This document shows positions 11,230 to 46,022 of a DNA stretch of 64,000 nucleotides, piece by piece. Each line of letters opens with the position of its first letter. Position 1 is the stretch's first letter. The position numbers were made by a program, and so were the translations under genes. The notes below the pieces were generated by a model. That model had not been told where the DNA came from. It did no database searches and was given only the letters and a program-made list of their open reading frames with translations. Origin of the DNA: a virus; the IMG/VR virus record IMGVR_UViG_3300024052_000085, positions 1 through 64,000 of that record; one strand, written 5' to 3'.

Positions 11230-11501
11230 TGTCTTTAGAATTTCAAACTAGAAGTAAGAATAGAGAAGACGCGAAGAATTTAAAGAAGAAGAAGATAAAG
11301 GTTTCTTTATTCAAGAATTTTAAAGCTAAAGATCTTCAACAAACAATTAAGCTGTTAGTTATCGGTCTTTCTTTAGGTAGCGGTATATTAGGAGCGGCAT
11401 ATCTTATTAGTGTAGGTATATCTCCTTATATAGGATTTATCTTTGGTGCAGGTGTATTAGCTGTACACTTAAATTATATAGCAACAGTAACAAAGTCATG
11501 A
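11229..11501 (+). CDS. two-helix membrane protein with basic head, 90 aa
   Basis: Residues 1-38 are strongly basic (KKKKIKVS); residues about 40-85 form two membrane helices joined by a short Gly/Pro turn. The basic head would face the cytoplasm. It may tether a replication complex to the membrane, judging only from its place among replication genes. Confidence 0.65.
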   Translation: MSLEFQTRSKNREDAKNLKKKKIKVSLFKNFKAKDLQQTIKLLVIGLSLGSGILGAAYLISVGISPYIGFIFGAGVLAVHLNYIATVTKS

Positions 11502-12031
11502 TCTGCGATAATTTAGAATATGCCATTAATGAATATTGTCTAGAATCTGGAAAGTTTCCAATATCAGATGGTAATTATGTTTCTAGTTGGATAGATCTAT
11601 ATCCTTTGACATGTAACAGGGAGTTTAGTAATTTAATTACTGAATCTCTCTGTTCTAAATTGTTTTCAAACTTTTGGCAATTTAGTTATGTAGCGGGAAA
11701 AGAACTTCATGGAACTCTATTAGCCAGTAGTTTAGTGGCCAAATGTAAATGGATAGATTCTGATTTGGTTATTGTACGTAAAGAAGCTAAGTCTATTAAA
11801 GTTCCTTATAATTTCGAGAAAGATTCTAATGAAAATAAATGTATTTTATTGGATGAAGTTATAAGTTCAGGTACTAATATGGAGTCTTCAATTATAGATC
11901 TAAACAATAGAGGATTTCAGGTAGTTGGAGTAATGAGTGTAGTATATAGAGGTGGAGGAGCTAAAGAGAAAGCAGAAGGGATGGGTATTCCTTTTGACTA
12001 TCTATATAAGATTCCCGAGGAGTTGATATGA
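11498..12031 (+). CDS. phosphoribosyltransferase-like (orotate PRTase-type), 177 aa
   Basis: The PRPP-binding loop is clear: CILLDEVISSGTNM near residues 115-128, with one of the usual two acids. A GKELHGTLLASSL segment upstream and VIVRKEAKSI fit the orotate PRTase layout (catalytic Lys loop). Proteins of this type join a base to PRPP. In a virus it may serve pyrimidine supply or base salvage. Whether all catalytic residues are present is not certain. Confidence 0.65.
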   Translation: MICDNLEYAINEYCLESGKFPISDGNYVSSWIDLYPLTCNREFSNLITESLCSKLFSNFWQFSYVAGKELHGTLLASSLVAKCKWIDSDLVIVRKEAKSIKVPYNFEKDSNENKCILLDEVISSGTNMESSIIDLNNRGFQVVGVMSVVYRGGGAKEKAEGMGIPFDYLYKIPEELI

Positions 12032-12330: not shown

Positions 12331-12685
12331 GGTAGATGCCTTATCTCGTTGGATTTCAAGAGATAGAGCTCAAAGAATGGCTCCCTATATGCCTAATCCA
12401 AGTGGTAATAGTCCGGGAGCTAGACGTACTCAAAGAATTTTAATAGCTATGAGAGCTAGAGTTATGGATGCTCAAAAACAATTAGAAAATGAATCGATTG
12501 TTGATGTCGATACTGGTGATCTTATTCATCCTATTTACGGTGTTGTAGATGAGGGTCGTAGATATCGGGGAGGTAACTATGGTAACCTTGCTATAGACGT
12601 AGCTACTACAGATGTTGAAACTATGATATTTACTGGAGATACAGATAATTTGGAGCCTGAACTACATGCTATCGTCAGCCCGTGA
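12269..12685 (+). CDS. hypothetical protein, 138 aa
   Basis: Arg/Pro-rich N-terminus, helical middle, acidic end. Placed directly before the polymerase gene and overlapping it by 20 bases. A primer-protein or accessory role is conceivable for a gene next to a family-B polymerase, but nothing in the sequence proves it. Confidence 0.55.
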   Translation: MTTPNRPNRRRQPSPAELQSRVDALSRWISRDRAQRMAPYMPNPSGNSPGARRTQRILIAMRARVMDAQKQLENESIVDVDTGDLIHPIYGVVDEGRRYRGGNYGNLAIDVATTDVETMIFTGDTDNLEPELHAIVSP

Positions 12686-14390
12686 TAAATGGGAGCTTGA
12701 ATCTCAAGAAAGATATAAAAGACTCTTTAGAAGTGAACCTGAATATGAACAAGAAAGAGAACTTCCAGATATAATTGCAAATAGGTTTGCTAACTCTCCT
12801 TCAGGTATGGGATTTCATGGTTTAAAGATAGAAGTTGACAACCTAGGAAATCCTAGACTTTGGTCAGAACAGGAAGAGTTAGATACTTATGATATATTTG
12901 AATGGATATTAGATAAAGAAGCAGTAACTTCAGTAGATGGTAGAGGGGTCTTTGATAGTATATTTAAGATTCTTAGTCCTAAACAGATAAAGGAGATTGC
13001 AATATTAGGTAAGACTACTATTTCAGATGGTACTCAACTGATCATACCAGGCAATGCTCCTTGGCTATCTGTACGTAAAGGTAATAAGACAGGTAAACTT
13101 ACAAATATTTATGGTCTTTTGTCTTTACAGAAGGAATTTGATACTGAATTTACAGATCCTGCACACTTTAGGAAGGCAACAGAACTGGCACATGCTAGAT
13201 TATGGAATGCAGGTTTAGGAGATTTAAGTATTAGATCTCCAGGTAACTTAATTGAGGCTATGGTTATTAGAAAATCTCCTCGGCAACCTTTACCTAATCT
13301 ATTACATGTCCAAAGGTTTGCGACAGCATTTAAACCTGCAAGAATAGAAGGTACTACGTTTGGGATTAATGAGGTAATTGACTACGATATTACTTCTGCT
13401 TTTCCTTCCGTTATAAGTGACTTAGTCGATTTAAACTCAATATATTGGTTAGATACTCATAAGCCTCAAGACGAAGCTATTTACGCAGCTATTAGATGTG
13501 ATTTGGAAATAAATCAATCTTTGATTAGAGGACCTATATCTGTAAGGTTAGGTACTAATTCGTCTTTCTTTCCTATAGGCATTATTTCAAGTATTTGGAT
13601 TAGTAAACCCGAATATGATTTGTTAAAAGATTATCCGGAGCTTGGTAAAGTTACTACAATACACGAAGCTTCTTGGGGTTGTCTAAGTAATCCTGAAAGT
13701 GCTGAAATTTATCCTTTCAGACGTCTACTTAAGAATTTATTGTTCCCTCTACGTCAGAGAGATAAATTTTTAGGTGGATATCTTAAATTAGCTATGGCAG
13801 CTTTATGGGGTAAGTTTATTTCTTCATATGAAGTTCAAGATACTTTGGATGGTGAGAAATATACTAGGTCTTCTAGTCTTTATAATCCTATATTTGCCTC
13901 TCATGTTACGGGAGCAGTTAGAGCTAGTCTTTATAGAACTAGCTTAGGTAAAGAAGTGGTAGGAGAATTCGTAGATGGTATAGCCTTATTAGAGTCTACT
14001 AGAACAAGAAATGGTTTTGGAGGTCTAATTCAAGAAGGCTCTGGAACGATGGTTCTATTCGACGATCAATATAAAGGTTGTGATTGGAAGAATCCTGAAG
14101 TATTAGTTTGGGCTCAAGGATATAAAGATAAGTATTTCTTCGAGATGCCAAGAAATTACAGAAATTCTTTACAATTTGCATATCAGAAATTTGGAACTGA
14201 TGGAGCAGCATCTGAAATGTCTAGGGAGTCTACTATAATGCAGCATATACCTATAGGACCTTCTAGAAGACTTATGGATGCTTACAGAGTAGGAGACTTC
14301 TTAAATTATTCTCTACCTAGTGCACCTCCTAGAATGTCAGATTTAATGACAATAATGTATCAGAGATCATTTAGTAGGAAGATAAGATAA
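12666..14390 (+). CDS. divergent family-B DNA polymerase (palm motifs A, B, C)
   Basis: 574 residues. Motif A is DYDITSAFPS (about 239-248), matching the D-x2-S-x-Y-P-S pattern. Motif B is LKLAMAALWGKF (about 373-385), close to the LK-x3-NSLYGKF of protein-primed enzymes. Motif C is EFVDGIAL (about 434-441) with the metal-binding Asp, although the usual second Asp is replaced. No clear 3'-5' exonuclease motif is seen in the N-terminus. Shorter than most family-B polymerases. It lies in the same operon as a Sak4-like ATPase, while a full PolA-type polymerase lies at 23368, so the element has two polymerases. Confidence 0.7.
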   Translation: MLSSARDKWELESQERYKRLFRSEPEYEQERELPDIIANRFANSPSGMGFHGLKIEVDNLGNPRLWSEQEELDTYDIFEWILDKEAVTSVDGRGVFDSIFKILSPKQIKEIAILGKTTISDGTQLIIPGNAPWLSVRKGNKTGKLTNIYGLLSLQKEFDTEFTDPAHFRKATELAHARLWNAGLGDLSIRSPGNLIEAMVIRKSPRQPLPNLLHVQRFATAFKPARIEGTTFGINEVIDYDITSAFPSVISDLVDLNSIYWLDTHKPQDEAIYAAIRCDLEINQSLIRGPISVRLGTNSSFFPIGIISSIWISKPEYDLLKDYPELGKVTTIHEASWGCLSNPESAEIYPFRRLLKNLLFPLRQRDKFLGGYLKLAMAALWGKFISSYEVQDTLDGEKYTRSSSLYNPIFASHVTGAVRASLYRTSLGKEVVGEFVDGIALLESTRTRNGFGGLIQEGSGTMVLFDDQYKGCDWKNPEVLVWAQGYKDKYFFEMPRNYRNSLQFAYQKFGTDGAASEMSRESTIMQHIPIGPSRRLMDAYRVGDFLNYSLPSAPPRMSDLMTIMYQRSFSRKIR

Positions 14391-17415: not shown

Positions 17416-17663
17416 TGAAAAATGATTTAGATGATGACAATAATCAATTTATTTGGTGGTTAGGAGAACTCGGAGTTTATTTATTAGAATGCTATAAATT
17501 CAATCTTATGGACCTTCTCGCAAATCATCCAGAAATAGCTAATAAATCTGCAGAGTTAATGAGAGAAGAATTTATGAAGGGTATGGATCCTCATACTTTT
17601 GGAGATTCTATAGTACCTAAAGAGTATACTAAAGTAGAAGGTATTAAGGAGAATTATGCCTGA
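17412..17663 (+). CDS. hypothetical acidic protein, 83 aa
   Basis: Acidic and helical. Overlaps the J-domain gene by four bases and the methyltransferase-like gene by eight. Not recognised. Confidence 0.6.
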   Translation: MMKNDLDDDNNQFIWWLGELGVYLLECYKFNLMDLLANHPEIANKSAELMREEFMKGMDPHTFGDSIVPKEYTKVEGIKENYA

Positions 17664-18132
17664 TAAAGAAGAGATTGAACTTGACATAGGTTTTTCCTAC
17701 TTTGGGGATCCTGATTTAGTTACAGAGTATGAAGGTGGGAGTTCTTTTAACTTACAGCCTGGATCTCATAAAAAGGTTATAGGTATAGATTTACAAACTG
17801 TTCCAGAAGACATTCCAGTAGACCAAATAAAAGCAAGTGCTGATTATCTTCCTATACAAGATCAAAGTGTTGATTCAGTATTTGCAGGTGGAGTCTTCGG
17901 AGCTTATGTTGATCTAGAAGACTCTGTTAAAGAAGCAGATAGAGTCTTAAGGCCTGGAGGTAAAATGTTCATAAGAACTTGGGGTAGATATATGCCTCGT
18001 TTGAAATTACTTCTTAAACGTGGATATTACATAACTGAAATGGGTACTCCAGACTCTAAGGATCTCTTTCCAGGCGAGAACCCTTTAGACTTTGAATGGC
18101 ACGTAAGAGCAGTTAAGAGAGGTAAGAGGTAA
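17656..18132 (+). CDS. short SAM-methyltransferase-fold protein, 158 aa
   Basis: Has class-I methyltransferase landmarks in shortened form: ELDIGFSYFG (motif I, with a degenerate Gly loop), VIGIDLQ (acidic end of strand 2), ADYLPIQDQSVDSVFAG and RVLRPGGKMFIRTWG. Ordinary type-11 methyltransferases are longer. Two similar proteins are encoded at 46015 and 52723. The substrate is unknown; the same fold can also be used without catalysis. Confidence 0.65.
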   Translation: MPDKEEIELDIGFSYFGDPDLVTEYEGGSSFNLQPGSHKKVIGIDLQTVPEDIPVDQIKASADYLPIQDQSVDSVFAGGVFGAYVDLEDSVKEADRVLRPGGKMFIRTWGRYMPRLKLLLKRGYYITEMGTPDSKDLFPGENPLDFEWHVRAVKRGKR

Positions 18133-18398: not shown

Positions 18399-19103
18399 AT
18401 GAAAGGATTGGTTTTACATTCAGGAGGATTAGACTCTTCTACGTTACTTGCAGCGGCTGCAGATGAGTGTGATGAGGTAGTAGGTCTTTCTATTGCATAC
18501 GGTCAAAAACATCAAGATAGAGAGATTAGAGCAGCGAGGGAAGTTTGTGCTTACTTTAAAGCAGAGCATCTTGAAATTGAGTTGCCAGATGTCTTCAAAG
18601 GCTTTGGTAGTACTCTTATGGATTCTGATAAAGATAATCCGCATCTTACCTATGAAGAGATCCGCGCTAGCGAAGGTCCTTCTCCTACGTATGTTCCGTT
18701 CCGAAATGCGAATCTTCTTTCCATAGCAACAGCAACTGCTCAGATACATAAATGTGATATAGTATACTTTGGAGCTCACTCGGATGATGCTCACAATTAT
18801 GCTTATCCTGATTGTACTCCTGAATTCATTGGAGCTATGGCAAATGCTATTAGTGTTGGAACGTATTATACTGTACGGTTGAAAACTCCTATTATGTGGA
18901 TGACTAAAGGTCAAGTTACTGAATGGGGTCAAAGTTTAGGAGTTCCCTTTGCAATGACTTATTCTTGTTACGAAGGTACTGAGATACACTGTGGAGAATG
19001 TCCTACCTGTGTTTCAAGACAAGTAGCGTTTGAGGAGGCAGGCATTGACGATCCCACAGAATATACCGGAGGAGCCCAACGCGAAAAAGCCATTCACGGT
19101 TAG
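18399..19103 (+). CDS. queC: QueC, 7-cyano-7-deazaguanine (preQ0) synthase
   Basis: Converts 7-carboxy-7-deazaguanine to preQ0 using ATP and ammonia. The PP-loop SGGLDSS is at residues 8-14, and the zinc-binding SCYEGTEIHCGECPTC is near 190-205. Length (234 aa) is normal for QueC. I start at the ATG after CGAGG; an in-frame ATG at 18339 would add 20 very basic residues not found in the family. It lies with queE and folE, which points to a deazaguanine pathway. Confidence 0.9.
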   Translation: MKGLVLHSGGLDSSTLLAAAADECDEVVGLSIAYGQKHQDREIRAAREVCAYFKAEHLEIELPDVFKGFGSTLMDSDKDNPHLTYEEIRASEGPSPTYVPFRNANLLSIATATAQIHKCDIVYFGAHSDDAHNYAYPDCTPEFIGAMANAISVGTYYTVRLKTPIMWMTKGQVTEWGQSLGVPFAMTYSCYEGTEIHCGECPTCVSRQVAFEEAGIDDPTEYTGGAQREKAIHG

Positions 19104-19251
19104 TCTAAGTATCTCTTATAGTGTTCCAAGACGCTACTCCAGAATACAAGCTGAAAGTAAAGAACAAGCTTTAGAAATTGCTCTAGAACAGTTACAAAAA
19201 GATACTTGGGGAGTACAGGATGTTAAAGTAATGTCAGTTGAAGAGGGTTAA
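19030..19251 (+). CDS. hypothetical protein overlapping the queC end, up to 73 aa
   Basis: Overlaps queC by up to 74 bases and ends just before queE. The unique part has strand-strand-helix character (SLSISYSVPRR, then a Glu/Gln/Ala-rich helix). Start uncertain: TTG at 19030 or 19045. It is not QueD, whose zinc-binding His motifs are absent. Weakly resembles small phage proteins with an amphipathic helix. Confidence 0.5.
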   Translation: MRRQALTIPQNIPEEPNAKKPFTVSLSISYSVPRRYSRIQAESKEQALEIALEQLQKDTWGVQDVKVMSVEEG

Positions 19252-19252
19252 T

Positions 19253-19954
19253 GTGGTAGACGCTTTAGATATTAAGAAAATAGAAGTTACGGAGATCTTT
19301 AGTTCTCTTCAAGGAGAGGGTAAGAGATGTGGAGTTCCTGCAACCTTTGTAAGATTAAGAAGATGTAATCTAGCTTGCATATGGTGCGATCAAAAAGAGA
19401 CTTGGGATGTAAACGATCCTGGGTATAACAATTATGAACTTAAGCATATATCTGAAATAAGACAACAGATATTAGACTACAATAATAGACTATTAGTTAT
19501 TACAGGAGGTGAACCTCTACTTTGGCAAAGAGAGCTAAGATATTTAATTGACTCAATGCCAAGTGAGATTAGTATAGAGATAGAATCTAACGGAACTATA
19601 GATCCAAGTTTTCTAAAGTTGACTAGGACTGAATTTAATATTTCACCTAAGATGTCTAACTCTGGAAACGGTGAAAGAAATACTAAAGTACATGACGAAT
19701 ACCTCGATCTATTTAAACTTAGAAGGGTCGTATTTAAGTTTGTAGTTAAGACAGCTAGTGATTTTGAAGAGGTAGATAGGTTTGTAGCTAATTATAATTT
19801 AAATCCTAAAGGTATTTATGTTATGCCTGAAGGAGTTGACCGAGAAACCATTTGCACTAGACTTCCAATCCTCTTCGATTATTGTAATGAGAGAGGATAT
19901 AATTTAACTACTAGATTACACGTTCTAGCCTTTGGAGATATGAAAGGAGTTTAA
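19253..19954 (+). CDS. queE: QueE, 7-carboxy-7-deazaguanine synthase (radical SAM)
   Basis: Radical-SAM enzyme that contracts carboxytetrahydropterin to 7-carboxy-7-deazaguanine. C38-x3-C42-x2-C45 ligates the 4Fe-4S cluster; FSSLQGEG before it and ITGGEPLLW near residue 85 bind substrate and SAM, all typical of QueE. I chose GTG at 19253; TTG at 19238 is possible. Provides the precursor for QueC. Confidence 0.9.
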   Translation: MVDALDIKKIEVTEIFSSLQGEGKRCGVPATFVRLRRCNLACIWCDQKETWDVNDPGYNNYELKHISEIRQQILDYNNRLLVITGGEPLLWQRELRYLIDSMPSEISIEIESNGTIDPSFLKLTRTEFNISPKMSNSGNGERNTKVHDEYLDLFKLRRVVFKFVVKTASDFEEVDRFVANYNLNPKGIYVMPEGVDRETICTRLPILFDYCNERGYNLTTRLHVLAFGDMKGV

Positions 19955-20146
19955 ATGCTAAGATCAACCATGATTACATGTTGCTATAAAGTATGTGGTA
20001 AAAACCATGGTTCTTCCCTAGGGTTACACTTTGATACTGATATTAAAGAAGTGTATTGTAACGTAAAGTGTTATGTAGAAGACTATTTCCTGAAACATAC
20101 AGGAAGACAAGGCGAAATTATAGAAACTGATAGAGGGTATAATTAA
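19955..20146 (+). CDS. small zinc-knuckle protein, 63 aa
   Basis: CC-x3-C near residues 9-14 and C-x3-C near 35-39 with a following aromatic helix, a layout like the 74-aa protein at 794. It is set between queE and folE and coupled to folE by TAATG. Function unknown. Confidence 0.65.
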   Translation: MLRSTMITCCYKVCGKNHGSSLGLHFDTDIKEVYCNVKCYVEDYFLKHTGRQGEIIETDRGYN

Positions 20147-20823
20147 TGGTAGAGCAGACTAACGAAGATCCAAGAGTAGTTGGAGGAGACTTTACAGAGA
20201 TTGTAAAATCAAGAAATAAAGGAGTTGAAGAAGATATTAATTATGGAGATAAAGAGAGAGGTAAAGATTTAGAAGACGCAGCTAAGTTAATAATCAAAGC
20301 TCTAGGCGAAGATATAAATGCAGAAGGACTATCTGAGACTCCAAGACGTTTCAGAGAAATGTTTATGGAGGATTTCTGGCCTGGAGATTCTTTAGATACT
20401 GTTCTAGGTGAAATGGTAATGGAAGAAAGCTTTGACCAAATGGTTATAGTTAAAGATATCCCAATCCGTTCACATTGCGAACATCACATATTACCTTGGT
20501 GGGGTAAGGTTTGTTTAGGTTATATTCCTCATGCTAAAACTGTTGGGTTAAGTAAAATGACTAGAATGGTTGATGCAGCAGGTAAAGGACTAACTATTCA
20601 AGAGAGAGTAACTGATAGTATTGCTCAGAGTATGAATAGAGTTCTAGATCCTAAAGGTGTAATGATAGTAGTTGAAGCAGTTCATATGTGTACTCTAATG
20701 AGAGGAGTAAAAACTGAAATGCAAAGATTTACTACCAGCACGGCTAAAGGAGTATTCTTAACTAATTCAGCACCTAGACAAGAGTTTCTAACCTTGTTTG
20801 CTAAAAATGGAAGTTTGATTTAA
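20146..20823 (+). CDS. folE: FolE, GTP cyclohydrolase I
   Basis: Opens GTP to dihydroneopterin triphosphate, the first step of deazaguanine and folate synthesis. CEHHILPWWG (about 110-119) supplies one zinc Cys and two His, and VHMCTLMRG (about 183-191) the second Cys; both are family hallmarks. The N-terminal 40 residues are extra and charged. With QueE and QueC it covers three of four preQ0 steps; QueD was not found in this window and may come from the host. Confidence 0.93.
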   Translation: MVEQTNEDPRVVGGDFTEIVKSRNKGVEEDINYGDKERGKDLEDAAKLIIKALGEDINAEGLSETPRRFREMFMEDFWPGDSLDTVLGEMVMEESFDQMVIVKDIPIRSHCEHHILPWWGKVCLGYIPHAKTVGLSKMTRMVDAAGKGLTIQERVTDSIAQSMNRVLDPKGVMIVVEAVHMCTLMRGVKTEMQRFTTSTAKGVFLTNSAPRQEFLTLFAKNGSLI

Positions 20824-20829
20824 TTTCTT

Positions 20830-20951
20830 CTCTAGCTTTGCTAGAGAGGTACTGTTGATCGGGAAACCGGCATGAGGATCACCTCCCTCAAACTACCTCC
20901 CGTCACGTGTGGGGCCGGCTGTAATCGTGGTTATCAACAGTACCTCTCTAG
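20830..20951 (+). ncRNA. large folded RNA element with 19-bp outer stem
   Basis: CTAGAGAGGTACTGTTGAT (20841-20859) is fully complementary to 20933-20951. Inside lie CGG-GAAA-CCG (GNRA tetraloop), GAGG-ATCA-CCTC and a CCGGC/GCCGG stem, giving a compact branched fold, GC-richer than its surroundings. A competing hairpin (CTCTAGC-TTT-GCTAGAG, 20830-20846) shares bases with the outer stem, so two states are possible. It sits between folE and a gene with an AAAGGAG site. It could be a riboswitch, a viral ncRNA or a cruciform replication site. No known family was recognised. Confidence 0.75.
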
Positions 20952-20971
20952 TAAATATAAAGGAGAAATAA

Positions 20972-21175
20972 ATGTTAACAACATTCGAAGAATTGCAAGT
21001 CTATCTTAGATCAGAACATCCATCAAGTCATAGTGTAGGGCCTTGTGTACTGTGTAGTGAAACAACTTCTGATAGATGTATTAGATGTAAAAAGTATTTC
21101 TGCGGAACTCATGTAGGACGTAAAGACTGTATCACCCCTAGAGATCTGTATGCAAATAAAATTGAAGATCGTTAA
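20972..21175 (+). CDS. AN1-like zinc-finger protein, 67 aa
   Basis: CVLC, CIRC, then FCGTH and a final C in the order C-x2-C-x7-C-x2-C-x4-C-x2-H, close to the AN1-type or B-box-type zinc finger. Translation site AAAGGAG lies just outside the folded RNA. Role unknown; it may be controlled by that RNA. Confidence 0.65.
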   Translation: MLTTFEELQVYLRSEHPSSHSVGPCVLCSETTSDRCIRCKKYFCGTHVGRKDCITPRDLYANKIEDR

Positions 21176-21189
21176 GGAAGAGTTAAAGG

Positions 21190-22269
21190 ATGCTTATAGA
21201 GAGTTTACACGGAGAATCTCAATGGACCAGAAGTCCAATGACCAACGGAAATATAAGAATGTCAATGACAGAAAACTGTCCTAGACAACAAGTGTATGTC
21301 GCTTTGGGGATAGAACAAGACTATCCTGAGACTGGAAGATCTCAAATGGCTGCTGATGATGGTAATCTACATGAAGCTGATGTAGTAAATAGATTCTTAG
21401 CAGCTGGTTATCGTTGTTGGAATTACGGTGAAGACCAAGCTATGGTGCATTTTGAAAGGGATGGTGTACGCTTTAGAGGACATCCTGATTTATTCATGGA
21501 AACTCCCGAAGGTGAAGTAATAGGAGTAGAACTCAAAGGTTATAGAGATGAAACCTTTAGACAGTTCGTTCAAGGAGCTGTACAGACAGTTCCAGGAATG
21601 TGGTCTGTTTCAGATTGGTCTAAACTAACTAAGAGACCTTATCCTTTAATGGGTCAATTACAAATGTATCTTCATTCTGATACTTCTACTAGTTATGGAA
21701 TAGATAAATGGGTTCTAGTTATGAAGAATAAAAACACTGCAGAGCTAGCTGAGTGTATTATTACTAAAGATGACGATTATATTAATAGACTAATAAGAAA
21801 GTGGAAAGGTTTCTGGGCTTATATTGAAGCTGGAAGACTTCCAGATAGATTCTTTGGAGATGATAGCATAGAATGTCGAAGATGTCTGTTTCGTCAAAAG
21901 TGTTGGAATCTTGGTGAAGTATTTACTTCAAAAGAGGATGTAGTTCACGTTAAAGGTTTAGAGAAGTTTGCTTCTATGCGAAGAGAAGGAAGTCTTTTAA
22001 AGAAGGATGCTGAAGGCCTATTAGAAGAATCTAGAATGGCTTTTCTAACTGAACATATTAATAAAGAAGCTACTAGGATAGAGTGTGACGGTCTTACAAG
22101 TACTGTAAGCGAAAGAAATAGAAGAGGTTTAGATAGTACAGAAGTAAATAAGGTTCTGGCCTATATGCTAGAAAAAGGTAATATTGACGATCAACAATAT
22201 GATGATTGTTTTAATGATGTAAGTTATCAGGAGGTTAGATTTAAAGATGTTAAACCCCGAGATGCCTGA
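21190..22269 (+). CDS. Cas4/RecB-like PD-(D/E)XK nuclease, probably with Fe-S cluster
   Basis: 359 residues. GHPDLF followed by GVELKG gives the D...E-x-K nuclease core, and MGQLQMYL gives the following Q-x3-Y motif. An early Cys in ENCPRQQ and a late C-x2-C-x5-C (ECRRCLFRQKCW) match the four cysteines that bind a 4Fe-4S cluster in Cas4/AddB-type nucleases. Likely a 5'-3' exonuclease producing ends for Sak4-dependent recombination. No cas1, cas2 or CRISPR array accompanies it. Confidence 0.8.
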   Translation: MLIESLHGESQWTRSPMTNGNIRMSMTENCPRQQVYVALGIEQDYPETGRSQMAADDGNLHEADVVNRFLAAGYRCWNYGEDQAMVHFERDGVRFRGHPDLFMETPEGEVIGVELKGYRDETFRQFVQGAVQTVPGMWSVSDWSKLTKRPYPLMGQLQMYLHSDTSTSYGIDKWVLVMKNKNTAELAECIITKDDDYINRLIRKWKGFWAYIEAGRLPDRFFGDDSIECRRCLFRQKCWNLGEVFTSKEDVVHVKGLEKFASMRREGSLLKKDAEGLLEESRMAFLTEHINKEATRIECDGLTSTVSERNRRGLDSTEVNKVLAYMLEKGNIDDQQYDDCFNDVSYQEVRFKDVKPRDA

Positions 22270-22627
22270 TACTAAGTCTATGAACTTTGAAGAATTGGTA
22301 GAGTATCGTAAAGGTATTGGTTATAATGTTTATGGAGTAGAATTAAGTTATGGCGTGATTGTAGATAGTGCTTACTATAAAGATGTTACATGGGAATGCA
22401 TAGAAGAATTAGCAGACGCTTTTGTATATTTAGACTTTGAAAGAGAAAAGTTGATAAACAGATCTTCTAAAGTAAATGTAAGAAGGATAGAATCTATTCA
22501 GAATAGAGTTAAAGACTGCGTAGTATTTATAAACAATTATAGAGACCTAATTAAAGAAAAATTTCCAGAACTTTTGGAGGATACATTACAAGATGAAATT
22601 CGCACCGGTACTGTCAGAGAAGTATGA
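22247..22627 (+). CDS. hypothetical helical protein, 126 aa
   Basis: Mostly helical and acidic; overlaps the nuclease by 23 bases and the DpdA-like gene by 35. Not recognised. Its position suggests a partner of DNA modification or processing, but this rests only on the overlap. Confidence 0.6.
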   Translation: MLNPEMPDTKSMNFEELVEYRKGIGYNVYGVELSYGVIVDSAYYKDVTWECIEELADAFVYLDFEREKLINRSSKVNVRRIESIQNRVKDCVVFINNYRDLIKEKFPELLEDTLQDEIRTGTVREV

Positions 22628-23378
22628 TCCAGCTAAATATTCCAATTATCATTTAGTATTGGCAAATGAAGTTATTAGTGATAACAGTTACGCTAATTAT
22701 TATAGCTCACTCGCTATCGACCATACTATTATTCTAGATAGCGGAACTGTCGAAATAGGTTATGCAGATTCTGAAATGATATTTGCAGCAGTAGAGAAAT
22801 TAAATAGAGAAGTTATTGTAGTTGCTCCAGATTTCTTAGGAGATAAAGATCGTACAATATTAGAGACTGAAGACTTTCTAAGTCAGGATGGATGTCCTGG
22901 CAAAGATAATGTAATGATAGTACCTCAAGGTGAAACTCCTGAAGAGTGGATTGAATGTTTTGATTACTTAGATCTTAATTACAATGAAAAGTTTAAGTGG
23001 GTTGGGATCCCTAGGATATCAGAAGACTTTCCAGGAGGTAGAAGTTGGTTGTATCAAAATGTAATGCAGATACACCGTAGGAGGAGGAGTATGAATGATC
23101 AACCTAAAATTCATCTTTTGGGACTACAACATACTTTAGATGAGATAGAATGGGCAAAACATTTCAGTTCTAGAATTGTAGGTGTTGATAGCAGTGCTCC
23201 TCTTAAAGCCGCAGAAATTAACGTTTTATGTTCTGAAGTTGTAGACTTTAGATTACTTACAGATATAAATGTAAATCCTTCAGAGGATTTAGTAGCCGAA
23301 AGAATACAAGAAATGGTTGAATATACTTCTTTCAGATGGAGTGTTAAAACTCAGGGAGAATTAATAAATGGAGCCTAA
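22593..23378 (+). CDS. dpdA: DpdA-like 7-deazaguanine transglycosylase acting on DNA
   Basis: 261 residues, shorter than tRNA-guanine transglycosylase but with its order of signatures: ILDSG (47-51), VVAPDFLGD (76-84), IVPQGET (109-115), VGIPR (137-141), IHLLGLQ (about 173-179) and GVDSSAP (about 197-203). Phage DpdA enzymes swap guanine in DNA for preQ0 or a derivative. FolE, QueE and QueC encoded 2-4 kb upstream would supply the base. A tRNA-acting role is less likely because no tRNA-binding domain is seen. The sequence is divergent. Confidence 0.65.
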   Translation: MKFAPVLSEKYDPAKYSNYHLVLANEVISDNSYANYYSSLAIDHTIILDSGTVEIGYADSEMIFAAVEKLNREVIVVAPDFLGDKDRTILETEDFLSQDGCPGKDNVMIVPQGETPEEWIECFDYLDLNYNEKFKWVGIPRISEDFPGGRSWLYQNVMQIHRRRRSMNDQPKIHLLGLQHTLDEIEWAKHFSSRIVGVDSSAPLKAAEINVLCSEVVDFRLLTDINVNPSEDLVAERIQEMVEYTSFRWSVKTQGELINGA

Positions 23379-25812
23379 ATATCCTGGATGTAATTGCGAA
23401 GAGTGTCCTTTAAAAGATGAAGGTTTTGTTCCACCTAGCGGACCTGAAGATTCTGATATCTTATTTATAGGACAAGCTCCTGCATATTACGAAGTTAGGA
23501 GTGGTAAACCCTTCTCAGGACCTTCAGGTAGTGTACTCGATGGTTCTCTAGAGAGTGTAGGATTACGTCGAGAAGACGTAAGAACAGATAATAGTGTACT
23601 TTGCTTTAATGCAGCAGGTTCAGGAGATCCTTCAATAGCTGCAGTAAGAGCATGTAATGGGCACATTAAAGAGGCTTTAAGTAAATCTAAATATGTTGTA
23701 CCTATGGGCAATAGTGCTTTAACTGCTATCTTTGATAAAGAAGTTGAAGGAATAACTCAATATGCTAATACACTATTCAGGCATAACGATAATATTATTC
23801 TTCCGCTAATACATCCAGCATTTTATCTTAGACAGTCAGGTGAAATGTTTAGAGACTTTTTAGAGGGTATGGCTCTACTCAAAGATCAAATAGACGGAGG
23901 TACTCTTTGGAATGACTTAGACTTTAAGTTTACAGTATTTAGGACTGTAGATGAAGTGATTCCTTTTCTAGAGAACCTCAGAGATAATCCTCCAGAGACT
24001 CTTGCAGTTGACTTAGAAACAGATTTCCCAGATCCCGTAAGAGGTGTTATAACAGGTGTTTCGCTTTGTAGTAGATATGATGAGGCTTTTATTATTCCTT
24101 GGGACTCTAACTATTTGGAAAGTCACGGAAGCGATATTGAACCGCTTTTGGAATATCAAAACGTCTTCGACTTGCTCAAAGAAGCTTTAGAAGCTCAAGA
24201 TGGAGTAGTAATGCATAATGCTCCTTTCGATGCAAGACTATTACGTCGAGAGGGTATAAATATTAGAGTCAGAGATGACAGTCTTTTAATGCATTATGCT
24301 TTAGATGAAAGAGCAACATCTCAAGGATTAAAGAAAGTTGCTAAAGTAATGTTAGGTATTCAAGATTGGGAATCTGATCTTAAACAATACTTACCTAATA
24401 AGGCCGCTCCGTATACTATGATACCTCCTGAAGTATTATATCCTTATGCTGCTAGGGATGCATGCTATACTTTAGTCTTGAGAGATTTACTTAGGAAACG
24501 TTTAGATGCTCCGGGAAACGAAGGTCCGTCATCTTTATACGAAAATATCTTAACTCCTTGTAACGAACTACTAATGGCTCTTAGTTTAGAAGGCGTGTCT
24601 ATGGATTCGCAAATTCTTGTAGACGCTATGACTGAGATGCCTGCTAAGCTTACAGAGCTAGAAAAAGAATTAGAAGAGTTGTCAGGAGATAGATGGTTTA
24701 ATCCTAGAAGCCCTAAACAGATTTCTGAAGTTATGTTTGGAAAACTTGGATTGAGACAGATTAATGGAACTAGTACAAATAAAGAAGTATTAGAACAGCT
24801 CTCTGGAGAACATGCTTTTGTAGATACTCTTATAGAGTATAGACAGTATCTAAAAGTATCTTCTACCTATATGGAAAACTTTGCTAAGAGTTACCAAAAT
24901 GGTAAAGGTTATCCAGATCTAAGATTATTTGGAACTGTTACAGGAAGGTTAAGTGGTAGTAAACTTAATCCTCTTACAATGCCTAGAGAGAGTAGAGGTG
25001 ATTTATATCGTTCTATAAAGAATGTATTTATAGCAGATCCAGATTGTTTCTTATGGGCTTCAGATTACAGAGCTGCTGAATTAAGAGTTATGGCTGTATT
25101 AGCAAACGATGATTGGTTAATAGAACAATTAAGTAGTCCTGATATAGATTTTCACTCTATAATGGCTGAACAAATATTCGGCGAAGAATTTATGGGTGCG
25201 GATAAATCCAGACAGAAGGAACTTCGAGTTATAGCAAAGATGTTCGTCTTTGGTCTTAACTATGGAAGAGAAGCTCCCTCAATAGCTAAACAGTTAGGTT
25301 GCGGCATTAATGAAGCTACTGATTTAATAGCAAAATATTTTAAACCAATGCCTAACGTATTAGCATGGCGTAAAGAAATGGAACGTACAGCTGTTGAAGA
25401 TGAATATCTAGAGAATCCTTTTGGAAGACGAAGACGCTTTTCTTTAATAACAAAAGATAATATTCATGATATAAAGAAGCAAGCTATTAACTCTCCAGTA
25501 CAAGCTACAGCTAATGATCTTAACTTACTAACTATGGAAAGGATTAGAAGAGAGCTTGGACCTGAAGTAAGAACATTATGGCCAGTACATGATAGTATAC
25601 TAATGAATGTTAAGGAGACAGTACCTAACGAAACACTATATGATCTAAGAGATATACTGTTTAAATATCCCAGTGAATTACTAAAGACAAGACTTCCTTT
25701 CTTTATTGATATCGCAGTAGGATATGCTTGGGGAACCTTAAAAGAAGTTAATGAAATTGAAGAGATTAAGGGTGCTTTAGCTCAACTCACACCTAGCAAC
25801 TCAGCATCATAG
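23368..25812 (+). CDS. uracil-DNA glycosylase / 3'-5' exonuclease / PolA-type DNA polymerase fusion
   Basis: Three domains in 814 residues. Residues about 1-185 match family-4 uracil-DNA glycosylase: C10, C13, C79 and C96 fit the 4Fe-4S ligands, with GQAPAYYE and HPAFYLR as active-site motifs. About 190-370 is a DnaQ-like exonuclease with D215-L-E217. About 400-800 is a family-A polymerase: motif A SDYRAAELRVMA (about 562), motif B RVIAKMFVFGLNYG (about 620) and motif C HDSIL (about 740). A glycosylase domain in front of a phage polymerase may scan for uracil or handle modified bases. Probably the main replicase. Confidence 0.92.
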   Translation: MEPKYPGCNCEECPLKDEGFVPPSGPEDSDILFIGQAPAYYEVRSGKPFSGPSGSVLDGSLESVGLRREDVRTDNSVLCFNAAGSGDPSIAAVRACNGHIKEALSKSKYVVPMGNSALTAIFDKEVEGITQYANTLFRHNDNIILPLIHPAFYLRQSGEMFRDFLEGMALLKDQIDGGTLWNDLDFKFTVFRTVDEVIPFLENLRDNPPETLAVDLETDFPDPVRGVITGVSLCSRYDEAFIIPWDSNYLESHGSDIEPLLEYQNVFDLLKEALEAQDGVVMHNAPFDARLLRREGINIRVRDDSLLMHYALDERATSQGLKKVAKVMLGIQDWESDLKQYLPNKAAPYTMIPPEVLYPYAARDACYTLVLRDLLRKRLDAPGNEGPSSLYENILTPCNELLMALSLEGVSMDSQILVDAMTEMPAKLTELEKELEELSGDRWFNPRSPKQISEVMFGKLGLRQINGTSTNKEVLEQLSGEHAFVDTLIEYRQYLKVSSTYMENFAKSYQNGKGYPDLRLFGTVTGRLSGSKLNPLTMPRESRGDLYRSIKNVFIADPDCFLWASDYRAAELRVMAVLANDDWLIEQLSSPDIDFHSIMAEQIFGEEFMGADKSRQKELRVIAKMFVFGLNYGREAPSIAKQLGCGINEATDLIAKYFKPMPNVLAWRKEMERTAVEDEYLENPFGRRRRFSLITKDNIHDIKKQAINSPVQATANDLNLLTMERIRRELGPEVRTLWPVHDSILMNVKETVPNETLYDLRDILFKYPSELLKTRLPFFIDIAVGYAWGTLKEVNEIEEIKGALAQLTPSNSAS

Positions 25813-25896: not shown

Positions 25897-25986
25897 GTGG
25901 CTAAAGTTAAAGGATACTCTTACAAACGGAAGGGTAAAACCATCCGAGTAAAGGGTTACAGTCGCAAAAAGTCCAAGAAACGCTAG
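25897..25986 (+). CDS. very basic 29-residue peptide
   Basis: GTG start eight bases after GGAGGT. Nearly half of the residues are Lys or Arg, with a repeated Lys-Gly-Tyr-Ser pattern at both ends. It lies between two sigma-70-type promoters and just before the coat-like genes. A role in condensing or coating virion DNA, as for small basic virion proteins, is likely but inferred. Confidence 0.7.
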   Translation: MAKVKGYSYKRKGKTIRVKGYSRKKSKKR

Positions 25987-26038: not shown

Positions 26039-26239
26039 ATGATTGAGTCAGTTATTAACGCTTTGGTTGCAGGTCTGATCGGCACGATTTCTTTTGTAGT
26101 TATCAAGAGTGTCGTTGCGGCTCAGAACACCACAGGTTGGTCTGCAGCTGAAATTGCCATCGTGACAATTATTCCTGTTGTTCTGGCGATCTTGGTCGTC
26201 GTCGGCATGTTTATGGGTCTCACGAAGCTTCGTTCCTAA
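26039..26239 (+). CDS. putative major coat protein 1, two-helix membrane protein, 66 aa
   Basis: Two hydrophobic helices (residues about 8-27 and 40-61) joined by a polar AAQNTTGWSAAE loop. This small two-helix plan with a TTGW turn resembles coat proteins of archaeal spindle-shaped viruses and, more loosely, filamentous-phage coats. Behind a near-consensus promoter and an AAAGGAGGG site; GC-richer codons. The next gene encodes the same protein with 64 of 66 residues identical. No signal peptide cleavage site is evident. Confidence 0.75.
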   Translation: MIESVINALVAGLIGTISFVVIKSVVAAQNTTGWSAAEIAIVTIIPVVLAILVVVGMFMGLTKLRS

Positions 26240-26287: not shown

Positions 26288-26488
26288 ATGATTGAGTCAG
26301 TTATTAATGCTCTAGTCGCAGGTTTGATTGGTACGATCTCCTTCGTTGTAATTAAGTCTGTTGTTGCAGCCCAGAACACTACAGGCTGGAGTGCAGCTGA
26401 GATTGCTATCGTAACTATTATCCCTGTTGTACTCGCGATTCTCGTAGTTGTGGGTATGTTTATGGGACTAACTAAGATGCGAGCTTAG
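26288..26488 (+). CDS. putative major coat protein 2, near-identical copy, 66 aa
   Basis: Differs from the first copy only in the last few residues (Leu to Met, Ser to Ala), yet 36 of 66 codons differ synonymously by my count. So the protein is under strong constraint while the DNA has drifted or been kept different. AAAAGGAGG site; a strong terminator follows. The two copies may mix in the virion or adjust dosage. Confidence 0.75.
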   Translation: MIESVINALVAGLIGTISFVVIKSVVAAQNTTGWSAAEIAIVTIIPVVLAILVVVGMFMGLTKMRA

Positions 26489-36965: not shown

Positions 36966-38287
36966 AAAAGAAAAATCTAGTAACTATAATATTAATAACA
37001 CTTACTACTCTTCTTTTAGGAGGTGTAGTTCAAGGGGATTCGGTACACGTAGGAGGAGCTGCATTAGTTCAGGGTATTGAAGTTCCTGCAGCCTCTGTTG
37101 CGGCTGTAGATGTTACTGTAGCTGTAAAAATTGATAGTGAATCCGAAATAGCTTCTGGTATAAGCGACGATGAAGTAGGAGATACTGGAGTTGCAACTGC
37201 TTTGATAACAATGCAATTGCATTCAGGAACTACTGATGTTCCTTTTATGCCTGGAACTAAGAATCAGCCAATACTTCAATATATAGATAAAGTGGGGACT
37301 AATGTTACCTCAGGTACTACTACACCTGCTTATAGTGGAGTAGGTGAAGATTTATTACCCTCTGCCCCTGCTGAAGAAGTATTTATGGCTATAGATCATA
37401 GAGCTCTTACTTTAGAAATGGATATGGGTCAAACTTCTTCAGGTACTTCAAGTGATTGGGAACTATACTATTTTAATCCTACAACCAATCTTTGGGTACT
37501 TTTTCCTGATGCTGAGGCACGTTTTACTACAACAGTAGGTCTTACAACTTTAAGTAGTACTACTGATCTACCTCTTGGGTGGACTAAAGGTACTCCGACA
37601 GACTTTGTAAGTATGACAGCTAATGCTTATTGGATTAAACTTAAACAAATAGCTGTAATAACTCCAAAGGTTCCGCAAGTAAAAACGATAGAATATAGAA
37701 CAGGAATCATGTTGTTTCATATGGATGAACATCAGATAAGCTTTGCGCAAGACTTCCTAGTCTATAAAGGAGGTACTACTACAATGAGAACGTTTAATAG
37801 TTATTTTCCAGGCTTTGATGGAATTACCCAAGCAGATCAGCCTTATCTAGAAATGAATTATGGAGCAACTACATCAGGATCTACTGATTGGGGTTTTGAA
37901 AGTTCTGTAGGCCTTAATTTAGACAAGAATGAATCGGGAAGTATATTTTCTAAATCAGGTTCTATGACTTTTAACTTTACTACAGCTGCTGCAGCTGGAG
38001 GTAATAACGCATTTACATTGTCTACGCCTGGATCTTCAAGCTACTACGGAGAATGGTCACATAATGAAAATGATGGTGGTGGTTATTATTCAGGAGCTGG
38101 AATAGAATCTCACTCAAAAGGATTTACTAATAAAGCAAGTAAATATAAAACAGCGAGAGAAGAAGATAATTCGGATAGCGTAACCTCAGATACCGGCGTA
38201 GTCGGAATAAGTAATTTAAAAGGAACAGATCCGGGGGGAACTGACACTACTCCCGTTTTTGGAGCGAAATTAAATGACCCTAGTTAA
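36962..38287 (+). CDS. exported surface protein, 441 aa
   Basis: TTG start on the previous stop; N-terminal signal peptide (residues about 4-25). The rest is Thr/Ser/Gly-rich and beta-like with no further membrane helix, so it would be released or held non-covalently. The last residues, VFGAKLNDPS, match blade-end motifs in the giant protein that follows (FGSKLTDPS, IGTKLSDPA). Likely a virion surface subunit. Confidence 0.7.
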   Translation: MKKKNLVTIILITLTTLLLGGVVQGDSVHVGGAALVQGIEVPAASVAAVDVTVAVKIDSESEIASGISDDEVGDTGVATALITMQLHSGTTDVPFMPGTKNQPILQYIDKVGTNVTSGTTTPAYSGVGEDLLPSAPAEEVFMAIDHRALTLEMDMGQTSSGTSSDWELYYFNPTTNLWVLFPDAEARFTTTVGLTTLSSTTDLPLGWTKGTPTDFVSMTANAYWIKLKQIAVITPKVPQVKTIEYRTGIMLFHMDEHQISFAQDFLVYKGGTTTMRTFNSYFPGFDGITQADQPYLEMNYGATTSGSTDWGFESSVGLNLDKNESGSIFSKSGSMTFNFTTAAAAGGNNAFTLSTPGSSSYYGEWSHNENDGGGYYSGAGIESHSKGFTNKASKYKTAREEDNSDSVTSDTGVVGISNLKGTDPGGTDTTPVFGAKLNDPS

Positions 38288-41200
38288 ACATGCAGACAAG
38301 TCCTGGATTTTAACCTGGACTTTAAGTCTTTTAACGATTTTAGGTTTTATAGGTTTACTAGTATATTCTAGTTTACCTACAACTGTACTTGCTAGTCATG
38401 ATCCTACAGCAGATCCCGATGACCCACATGCTGCCTTTAGAGTAGTTGATGTTAGGGAGGCTTACGGCAGGTTAGTACTTGAAGTTCAACACTTTAAGTC
38501 TAATGGAGACCATTGGTTCTATGAAGTTTATACTTGGGAAGGTACAGAAGAATTTAATAGACTTCCAGCTATTAATCCTCAGGGTCAATTATTATTAGAA
38601 GATAATAGTATTGCTCCTTATATTGCTAATCCTGAATATAATGAAGTAGGTATACTAAATCTAGACGAGTACAGAAAGGATGTTCCTCCAGAAGTACAGT
38701 ACATACCAATTAAGAAAGTAGAGTTTGAATTCCAAAAGGTAATAGAGGATGTAATTCCGTCAGATCCAGGAAAAGATACTTACTTTCAGTTTCTTGTAAC
38801 TTCAGGGGAAACTATAGGCTGGGAACAAGAGCAAGTTCTACAGAAACTAGGCCCACCCCTATCCAGTTCAAATAACGTAGTTGGAGATTTAGCCCCCGTA
38901 GTTGGGGATACATTAACTTATATTTACAGTGATGGTCCTGAACTACAATATTCTAATGAGACAGCCTTAAATAAAGAGGCTATTATTCAACAGGTAGCCT
39001 CTATTCATCAAGTACGCACAGAAAAGGGTTGGACAGGTAATAAGGGTAGAGTATTATCTCCTGAAGTTAAAAGCACTCCTAAATCAATAGAGGGAGCTAA
39101 ACTTCTAAGTATTAGATTTGCTCATCTACAGGGAACTACTTATTTTGAAGATGGAACTATATTTAATGGAGACACTGATCTCTTAGCAGGTATTGACGAT
39201 TATTTTGAGAGAGTTGATTTAAGGACTGATAGAAGTAAGACCTACAGTATTGGAGAAGATCTATATAGAACTGAACTGTATCAGACTGCTATTCATAGTG
39301 AAAATGAAAATGGAGAACTCTTAGATATATCCTATGACTTCATCAGAGTGCCAGATACCGATACCTGGGTAATGGGGACTCATCCAGATTATAAAGTTAT
39401 TGCTGATGAATCTACTCTAACTATAATAGATCCCACAGACACATATGGAGGTAGATGGTATACTCCTGCTCCTCTAACTTTTAAGGATAATACTGCTTAC
39501 TACTATGATGATGGATTAAAGTGGGTCTATTCTCTAACTCCTTCTGGAATAAAACTTGATGCTGAAGTTCATGAACCTAGGGGAGAAAGAGACTATGAAT
39601 TTACTTTCTTACCTTTGGGTGAAGGTATACAACCCTTTAGAATAGATAGTGATGGTAATGCAGTAACTGCTGATAGAGCTGTATCCACTACAGGTGGGGA
39701 AATTTACTTTGACTTTACTTTAAATGAGAATGATTATAGTATTGAACCTCAGTTAGTTGTTCCACGAGCTTTTGCTGAATTTGGAGAGGATATTAATAAA
39801 GTAAGGGTGAGTGCTTCTCCTTGGGAGATAGTAGACGACTATACGATTAAATTTACTTTTGATGATAAGGATATAACGAGTTATCCTTATGTACTTGATC
39901 CTACTACTACTATTTCACTAGTTGGAAATCCTCTACAAAATGGTATGATGTTCGGGACTATGTACTGTAATCCTATAACAGCTGGGTTTTACCCAAACTG
40001 GACTTGTGGTAGTGTTCATGGAACTGGACCAGAAGACTATTATATAGGTAAGTCTTCTGGTTCAGCTTATGAAGCAAAGAGGGGGATGATTAAGTTTGAC
40101 TTGAATAGTCTTCCTGCAGGTATTGTTATAACTAGAGCTTATATAGATATGTATAACTTTACTGGTGGAAGGAACTTTGATTCCACAGATTATGGGGATG
40201 ACCGTATTAATTTCCATAGACTTAGAAAAGAATGGGATATGAACGCAAACTGGACTAAAGCTACCAATAGTGTAAACTGGACAGGAGGTGGTGCTAGTCA
40301 AGACTGTTGGCATATAACTGCTAATAGCAATACTGGTTGTGATAGAGATACTGAAGTGTCTGCATCACTTGATGCTTATTCTGCTACCTCTCATCCTAAT
40401 GATAGCAATGCAGACTGTAACTGTTGGCATAGATGGGAAGGTGAAAAGTTATTAGTAGATGTTAGGCAGATGTATAGTGGTATGCGCCCTAACTATGGAT
40501 GGGTTATTGAACATCCTCAAGCTGAAAACTCTGCTAAACTGCAGGGTACCTGGGCCTACTGGTATTATGGCTATTATGGCTATAACCAAGTAGTAACACT
40601 TGGTCTTGCTACATATGCTCCACATATGACTGTGGAATATACTTTCCCTTCAATTGACAGTTGTGTTACTCAGACTAATTGGTATACAACAAATCAGGGT
40701 AGTTCCCCAGCTATGTGGGATGGTCAGATAGCTCACAACAATAACCACGTTGCTGCAACCTTCGTAACTAGAACTAGAGAACCTACAACATCTAATTCTG
40801 GGAACGCTAATTATGATACTGATATTACTGATACCCATATTAAAGTAGGTTGGTATGCAAAGCAAGGTATGACAAACGTTTTCTGGATACAACGAGGTGT
40901 TGTAATGTACGACACTTCAAATCTTCCAGATGATGCTATAGTAGTAGATGCAAAGTGGCACTTCACAATTAGTGCTAAAGCCAACCAAAATACTTCTGTT
41001 ACAGCTGAATATGCCTATGATGGGTCTGTTGGTAGTTTCAACTCCTTAGCTAGTCAATCTATAAATTTAGTTGGACTGAATTATACAGACCCTGATGGAC
41101 TGAATCCTAATAGTGGTTTAGCTGGAGCTAATAGACATGACTTAACTAGTATGACCACTTGGAATACTAATGACTATGGCGTCCTAAAACGTTCTGTAGA

Positions 41201-45968: not shown

Positions 45969-46022
45969 TGGCAGAGTGGAATAGAGAATATTTTGATGGG
46001 AGAGCATACGTATAATGGCAGA
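45952..46022. repeat. 47-base tandem duplication across a gene boundary
   Basis: The 24-base word at 45952-45975 recurs at 45999-46022. It covers the last codons of the giant gene, TAATG and the first codons of the next gene. The first copy starts a 15-codon frame ending in a repeat of the giant protein's C-terminus (RAYV). Confidence 0.8.

What the first reader, a model, noticed from the sequence alone, without database searches (positions are those of the whole stretch)
18399..23378. 7-deazaguanine DNA modification pathway with a short DpdA-like enzyme and no visible QueD
FolE, QueE and QueC are clear, and a TGT/DpdA-like protein lies 3.5 kb downstream. Phages with this set are known to replace part of their guanine with preQ0-type bases to escape restriction. 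QueD is missing from the window, and the DpdA-like protein is small (261 aa) and divergent, so both the exact base and the enzyme subtype may be new.
Basis: partly seen in the sequence, partly recalled or inferred. Interest (0 to 1): 0.82.

Follow-up and report, generated by a model that had tools for sequence, protein, structure and literature searches.

The report
preQ0 DNA-base pathway, non-tailed marine virus
This marine virus carries a complete gene set for making a modified guanine (preQ0) plus a compact enzyme that very probably swaps it into the viral DNA; the chemistry is known from tailed phages, but here it sits in a virus that looks like a spindle-shaped archaeal virus rather than a tailed phage.

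Summary
The genes are real. QueC (18399-19103), QueE (19238-19954), FolE (20146-20823) and a DpdA/TGT-like protein (22593-23378) are present and under strong purifying selection. QueD is not missing: it lies at 70381-70794 of the same 78.8-kb virus record, 6.4 kb past the window end. With all four preQ0 enzymes and no QueF over cut-off or amidotransferase seen, the predicted DNA base is 7-cyano- (preQ0) or 7-amido-7-deazaguanine (ADG).

The 261-aa enzyme is not unusually small. It belongs to a compact, mostly unannotated DpdA family (246-290 aa) found in Campylobacter, Cellulophaga, Flavobacterium, Bacillus and Brevundimonas phages, usually beside queuosine-pathway genes. Three Asp residues, invariant in the family, align with those of TGT, and the predicted fold's best solved match is TGT. 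It probably corresponds to the published DpdA3 subfamily, but that paper was not available.

No tailed-virus structural gene was found. The cluster abuts tandem 66-aa two-helix coat-like proteins whose best solved match is the coat of spindle-shaped virus SSV19; a Zot-like ATPase follows. A second, independent contig shows the same order up to the coat-like genes.

The parts
18399..19103 (+). QueC, 7-cyano-7-deazaguanine (preQ0) synthase, stand-alone (no fused amidotransferase domain), 234 aa
   Evidence: PF06508 E=1e-55, over the TIGR00364 equivalog cut-off; ATP motif SGGLDSS and Zn cysteines CxxxxxxxCxxCxxC read in the sequence; dN/dS 0.08 vs L002. The start aligns with the relative's MKGLVLHSGG.
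19238..19954 (+). QueE, 7-carboxy-7-deazaguanine synthase (radical SAM); exact start uncertain
   Evidence: PHROG_2076 E=9e-55, PF04055 E=4e-9, CxxxCxxC motif; dN/dS 0.18
20146..20823 (+). FolE, GTP cyclohydrolase I (first step of the pathway)
   Evidence: PF01227 E=3e-55, over the TIGR00063 cut-off; dN/dS 0.11
22593..23378 (+). Compact DpdA-family DNA-guanine transglycosylase (predicted), 261 aa; three conserved Asp D49, D80, D199
   Evidence: Homologues in 7-deazaguanine-pathway phages; AF2 model with best PDB match TGT; blind profile ranking recovers known DpdAs; dN/dS 0.18
23368..25812 (+). Uracil-DNA-glycosylase-superfamily domain + 3'-5' exonuclease + family A DNA polymerase; start overlaps the dpdA stop
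   Evidence: PF03167 E=8e-20, PF01612 E=2e-11, PF00476 E=4e-70; several of the best full-length phage matches are phages that also carry this DpdA family
21190..22269 (+). Cas4/RecE-like exonuclease inside the cluster (associated, not part of the pathway)
   Evidence: PHROG_1990 E=1e-13
26039..26239 (+). Coat-like 66-aa protein with two hydrophobic helices, copy 1 (evidence for virus type)
   Evidence: AF2 mean pLDDT 86; Foldseek top PDB match is SSV19 7xdi_A, TM 0.71/0.69, probability 0.95, E=0.47
26288..26488 (+). Coat-like 66-aa protein, copy 2 (97% identical)
   Evidence: Alignment A6; tandem pair also in L102 and L013
34475..35272 (+). Zot-like ATPase of the presumed virion module (evidence for virus type)
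   Evidence: PF05707 E=1e-8; relatives L012 (90% identity) and L013 (61%) in the same gene neighbourhood

Best explanation
The virus makes preQ0 from GTP with its own FolE, QueD, QueE and QueC. A compact DpdA-type transglycosylase then cuts guanine out of its DNA, probably through a covalent Asp intermediate as in TGT (D199 the predicted nucleophile, D49 and D80 the other active-site Asp), and puts the 7-deazaguanine base in its place after or during replication by the adjacent UDG-PolA polymerase. With no reductase or amidotransferase detected, the final base should be 7-cyano-7-deazaguanine (dPreQ0) or, if QueC stops at the amide, dADG. The benefit is protection of viral DNA from host nucleases. 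The carrier is most likely a non-tailed, spindle-shaped-like marine virus, probably of an archaeon. Shown here: the gene set, homology, purifying selection, synteny and predicted folds. Inferred: activity, the exact base, virion shape and host. The confidence given is for the DNA-modification part; for the virus type it is about two thirds.
For: All four preQ0 enzymes are in one record. QueF scores below cut-off: best on the related FolE, otherwise on a frame with four stops; QueC has no amidotransferase part. The inserting enzyme's homologues lie in phages with the same pathway: StAshley QueC-D-E-X-DNA polymerase, Youna2 and BSTP5 QueC-D-E-FolE-X-PolA, phi19:2 QueD-E-FolE-X, immuto QueD-E-FolE-X (annotated DpdA), CC_R7 QueC-X, and CP220, which has QueC elsewhere. 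Hutinet 2019 (PMC6884629) cites Campylobacter phages as highly modified by dADG while lacking the then-known DpdA. Invariant residues include D49, D80, H174 and D199; hhalign places D80, Q112 and D199 opposite the E. coli TGT motifs. The best Foldseek PDB match is TGT 3eou, E=1e-3, probability 1.0. In a blind ranking of 181 ORFs, the top three are an HVTV-1 protein and the DpdA1s of CAjan and 9g; E. coli TGT is sixth. The same linkage to the coat-like genes occurs in an independent contig.
Against: No direct match to TGT or DpdA HMMs for the window protein, although PF01702 also misses phage 9g with its demonstrated DpdA. The AF2 model is only moderate (mean pLDDT 69, pTM 0.69) and other TIM barrels score nearly as well. 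No mass spectrometry exists. The coat match is a simple two-helix hairpin with E=0.47. The record may be incomplete and no host was found.
Confidence: 0.8

Rival explanations
1. The virus makes preQ0 to boost host tRNA modification (queuosine or archaeosine), and the TGT-like protein acts on tRNA or is unrelated.
For: preQ0 is also the tRNA-modification precursor; Hutinet 2019 (PMC6884629) raises this for viruses with pathway genes but no DpdA.
Against: The enzyme lacks the CxCxxC zinc site of E. coli TGT; it is directly followed by the DNA polymerase gene here and in StAshley, Youna2 and BSTP5; its family occurs in Campylobacter phages, a group reported to carry dADG in DNA.
Confidence: 0.07
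2. The modified guanine enters as a dNTP: preQ0 is converted to a nucleotide by a phosphoribosyltransferase and incorporated by the polymerase; the TGT-like protein has an accessory role.
For: A phosphoribosyltransferase-like ORF lies at 11498-12031 and PRTases neighbour the clusters of StAshley and immuto; Hutinet 2019 mentions a dGTP-analogue route proposed for Campylobacter phages.
Against: The window PRTase is below cut-off and only weakly similar to immuto's; the TGT-like gene is the more regular companion; the same PRTase could simply salvage the displaced guanine.
Confidence: 0.1
3. On the virus type only: the carrier is a divergent tailed phage or archaeal tailed virus whose head and tail genes are not recognised or lie outside the record.
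For: The record may be incomplete; several replication genes resemble those of tailed phages.
Against: No terminase, portal, capsid or tail family in the ORFs scanned, including those around and to the right of the coat-like genes; the coat-like tandem pair and the Zot ATPase occur together in a second contig, L013, and the ATPase module recurs in L012.
Confidence: 0.25
4. Chimeric assembly that joined a phage que cluster to another virus.
For: The combination is unexpected.
Against: A second contig from another sample has the same order from QueC through DpdA and PolA to both coat-like genes, with 64-88% protein identity for the que, DpdA and PolA genes.
Confidence: 0.02

Closest known systems
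Compact DpdA family of Campylobacter phage CP220 gp056 (PHROG_19058), Cellulophaga phiST/phi19:2 gp042 (PHROG_20335) and Flavobacterium phage immuto gp206; probably the published DpdA3 subfamily (Cui et al. 2023, recalled from memory, paper not held)
   Same: Size 246-290 aa, same invariant residues, context of queuosine-pathway genes
   Different: Only 21-31% identity; window and L002 form their own clade beside Brevundimonas phage StAshley; they have Ser instead of Asn after the first Asp
DpdA1 of phages 9g and CAjan
   Same: Predicted reaction and aligned active-site motifs
   Different: Longer (306-317 aa), recovered only by profile comparison; the 9g pathway uses an amidotransferase-QueC fusion (PMC6884629), here QueC is stand-alone
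Group 2 of Hutinet et al. 2019 (FolE, QueD, QueE, QueC + DpdA, no amidotransferase; predicted dPreQ0 or dADG)
   Same: Same gene complement
   Different: QueD is about 50 kb away from the cluster; the phages of that paper are all tailed
Spindle-shaped archaeal viruses (SSV19, SSV1, putative marine thaumarchaeal viruses of PMC10866085)
   Same: Small two-helix coat-like proteins, an ATPase, no tailed-virus genes found
   Different: Genome 78.8 kb versus 27-38 kb for the putative marine ones; no sequence-level match to known coats; Zot-like ATPase; complete preQ0 pathway

Membership tests
DpdA / TGT superfamily | TGT-type (beta/alpha)8 barrel | tested here: met
   AF2 pLDDT 69; best PDB match TGT 3eou E=1e-3, prob 1.0, and three more TGT entries in the top seven. 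Moderate model quality; other TIM barrels follow closely.
DpdA / TGT superfamily | Three active-site Asp at the TGT positions | tested here: met
   D49, D80 and D199 invariant in 19 diverse members; profile alignment places D80 and D199 opposite the E. coli TGT catalytic motifs and D49 opposite the 9g LDSG motif. Positions in the model were not measured.
DpdA / TGT superfamily | Match to curated TGT or DpdA HMM | tested here: inconclusive
   No match for the window protein; but PF01702 also misses all of phage 9g including its demonstrated DpdA, and 3 of 37 relatives graze TGT at best E=0.016.
DpdA / TGT superfamily | Inserts a 7-deazaguanine base into DNA | not testable with these tools
   Needs enzymology or mass spectrometry.
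Canonical tRNA-guanine transglycosylase | CxCxxC zinc site in the C-terminal part | tested here: not met
   Absent in the window protein (only Cys 101, 122, 213) and all relatives examined, present in E. coli TGT at C302.
DpdA3 subfamily (Cui 2023) | Membership by the authors' sequence definition; complete guanine replacement | not tested
   Paper not held. Relatives in Campylobacter and Cellulophaga phages suggest it.
Virus-encoded preQ0 pathway (Hutinet group 2) | FolE, QueD, QueE, QueC and a DpdA; no amidotransferase or QueF | tested here: met
   the QueF model scores only below cut-off. ArcS was not searched separately, and the record may be incomplete.
Spindle-shaped virus | Small coat protein folding as a hydrophobic alpha-hairpin like SSV VP1 | tested here: inconclusive
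   Top PDB match SSV19 7xdi_A, TM 0.71/0.69, prob 0.95, but E=0.47 and a simple fold. Direct profile alignment to SSV1 VP3 failed.
Spindle-shaped virus | Spindle virion, archaeal host | not testable with these tools
   No isolate; host scans found nothing usable.
Tailed virus (Caudoviricetes) | Large terminase, portal, HK97 capsid, tail genes | tested here: not met
   None among the ORFs scanned with PHROGs, or by PF03237 on the whole record. Not every small ORF was scanned.

The most novel reading that the evidence does not exclude
This is the first complete 7-deazaguanine DNA-modification system (all four preQ0 enzymes plus its own transglycosylase) in a spindle-shaped archaeal virus lineage, acquired together with a UDG-PolA replication module shared with tailed bacteriophages. 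Hutinet 2019 lists 2 Bicaudaviridae and 12 Ligamenvirales among its archaeal viruses, so isolated pathway genes in non-tailed archaeal viruses are not new; the complete set would be, as far as I could find.
Probability: 0.5. Interest if true: 0.65.

Novelty: new member of a known kind. Interest (0 to 1): 0.5.

Why it matters
It corrects two open points of the finding (QueD exists; the short enzyme has a family) and gives a likely function to two PHROG families listed as unknown function (19058, 20335). If the virus type holds, guanine replacement, so far documented mainly in tailed viruses, also occurs in structurally unrelated spindle-shaped-type viruses, which would mean that replication-modification modules cross between very different virus lineages and that the unknown marine host presses DNA camouflage on its viruses. 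Modified DNA can also bias sequencing-library preparation, so such viruses may be under-counted.

Tried and rejected
Direct HMM and PDB sequence searches for the DpdA-like protein (Pfam, NCBIfam, PADLOC, PDB) gave nothing usable; the DUF6610 match (E=0.03) was treated as noise or a remote barrel relative. A search of viral contigs with the diverse six-sequence alignment was not possible (no conserved stretch); single-sequence scans with the StAshley and Youna2 proteins found nothing. Host search by the Zot ATPase and by a viral glycosyltransferase found no usable cellular relative. hhalign of the coat-like proteins with SSV1 VP3 failed. Chimeric assembly was considered and rejected because of the second contig. 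The paper defining DpdA3/DpdA4 could not be read, so the subfamily name is a lead only. Several calls used 18402 as QueC start, one codon after the ATG (18399); results are unaffected.

Full report
What is there. The window is the first 64,000 bases of a 78,758-base virus record of IMG/VR. Between 18.4 and 25.8 kb, all on the + strand, lie QueC, QueE, FolE, a Cas4-like exonuclease, a 126-aa protein, the 261-aa DpdA-like protein and a UDG-exonuclease-PolA polymerase, with small ORFs between them. QueC passes the TIGR00364 equivalog cut-off and has the PP-loop and the four zinc cysteines. QueE matches the phage QueE family at 9e-55. FolE passes TIGR00063.

QueD. A whole-record search with PF01242 finds QueD at 70381-70794 (E=6e-30), an ORF of 137 aa with the HGH motif and a preceding cysteine typical of QueD (sequence). 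So the preQ0 pathway is complete. No QueF passes its cut-off; the better of two sub-threshold hits is FolE itself, which shares the fold, and the other is a frame with four stops. QueC has no fused amidotransferase domain. By the scheme of Hutinet et al. 2019 (PMC6884629) this is the class predicted to carry dPreQ0 or dADG.

The inserting enzyme. The 261-aa protein matches no curated TGT or DpdA model, but that is uninformative: PF01702 finds nothing in phage 9g either, whose DpdA is demonstrated. tblastn finds relatives of 246-290 aa in Brevundimonas, Weizmannia, Bacillus, Cellulophaga and Campylobacter phages, and chaining adds Flavobacterium (annotated DNA guanine transglycosylase), Chryseobacterium and Aeromonas phages and 98 viral contigs close to the Flavobacterium phage. 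A profile of the family recovers the named-phage members at 9e-9 to 3e-151. Their neighbours are QueC, QueD, QueE, FolE and DNA polymerases. Hutinet 2019 discusses Campylobacter phages as dADG-modified without a recognisable DpdA; this family is the obvious candidate for the missing enzyme, which from memory is what Cui et al. 2023 named DpdA3. I could not open that paper.

Active site and fold. Across 19 diverse members L23, D49, D80, T88, R150, H174, L176, G177 and D199 never vary. Profile alignment puts D80 and D199 opposite the catalytic motifs of E. coli TGT and D49 opposite the LDSG motif of 9g DpdA. An AlphaFold2 model from 37 sequences (pLDDT 69, pTM 0.69) has TGT 3eou as its first PDB match (E=1e-3, probability 1.0), with TGT also third, fourth and seventh; other TIM barrels follow closely. 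In BFVD the best match is the Cellulophaga phiST member. In a blind test, the family profile was aligned to 181 ORFs of phages 9g and CAjan, halovirus HVTV-1 and an E. coli stretch; the top three were HVTV-1 gp69, CAjan DpdA1 and 9g DpdA1, and E. coli TGT was sixth. The zinc site of tRNA TGTs is absent, as it is in DpdA1.

Selection and synteny. A second contig (L002/L011/L102, another sample) has the same order from QueC to the coat-like genes, with 64-88% protein identity for the que, DpdA and PolA genes and dN/dS of 0.08-0.18. This excludes chance and makes chimeric assembly very unlikely.

The carrier. No terminase, portal, capsid or tail family was found among the ORFs scanned. Directly after the polymerase come two nearly identical 66-aa proteins, each with two hydrophobic helices; they are also paired in L102 and L013. 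The model (pLDDT 86) has as its first PDB match the spindle-shaped virus SSV19 (7xdi_A, TM 0.71/0.69, probability 0.95; E=0.47, so weak in itself). The same kind of evidence, a hairpin coat resembling SSV19 VP1, was used by the authors of PMC10866085 to nominate marine spindle-shaped viruses. A Zot-like ATPase and very long proteins (2203 aa; 2564 aa with predicted membrane helices near both ends) complete the picture. I read this as a large spindle-shaped-like virus, probability about two thirds, host probably archaeal but not shown.

Origin. Several of the best full-length phage matches of the UDG-PolA polymerase are phages that also carry this DpdA family (Youna2, BSP7, StAshley), and the DpdA tree puts the window beside StAshley (99/97, long branches). 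The que genes, DpdA and polymerase therefore look like one exchangeable module (inference).

Mechanism. FolE, QueD, QueE and QueC give preQ0 (established pathway). DpdA exchanges guanine for it in DNA (shown for phage DpdA in PMC6884629; inferred here). The released guanine may be salvaged by the phosphoribosyltransferase-like ORF at 11498-12031; PRTases also neighbour the clusters of StAshley and immuto, but this is only a lead.

Verdict. The chemistry is a known kind and the enzyme a member of a known though poorly annotated family, so the claims of a missing QueD and a possibly new subtype fall. The surprising part is the virus that carries it.

Noticed in passing
23368-25812: Uracil-DNA-glycosylase-superfamily domain fused to a family A DNA polymerase, start overlapping the dpdA stop; the best full-length phage matches include phages with this DpdA family, suggesting a functional link between the polymerase and modified DNA.
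   Followed up: partly
25897-25986: 29-aa very basic ORF (GTG start, GGAGG ribosome site) just before the coat-like genes, conserved in L102; possibly a VP2-like DNA-binding virion protein.
   Followed up: no
12666-14390: 574-aa protein with a possible family B polymerase motif A (phrog_11768 E=3e-4), so the virus may have two DNA polymerases.
   Followed up: no
L101:33803-34963: HVTV-1 gp69 (386 aa, unknown function) is the best match to the family profile in a blind test; probable transglycosylase of this dPreQ1-containing archaeal virus, which had no recognised DpdA in 2019.
   Followed up: partly
L007, L098, L100: The records of Cellulophaga phi19:2, Chryseobacterium MA9V-3 and Aeromonas Ahp1 members have no QueC match, so their base is probably an earlier intermediate (carboxy- or plain 7-deazaguanine).
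   Followed up: partly
11498-12031: Phosphoribosyltransferase-like ORF (PF00156 below cut-off); PRTases also flank the que clusters of StAshley and immuto. Possible guanine salvage.
   Followed up: partly
17656-18132, 46015-46563, 52723-53292: Short methyltransferase-like proteins, apparently similar to each other, one just upstream of QueC; the first evolves fast (dN/dS 0.46).
   Followed up: partly
38274-45968: 2564-aa protein with signal-like N-terminus and C-terminal membrane helices, no PHROG match; probable surface or receptor-binding protein.
   Followed up: no
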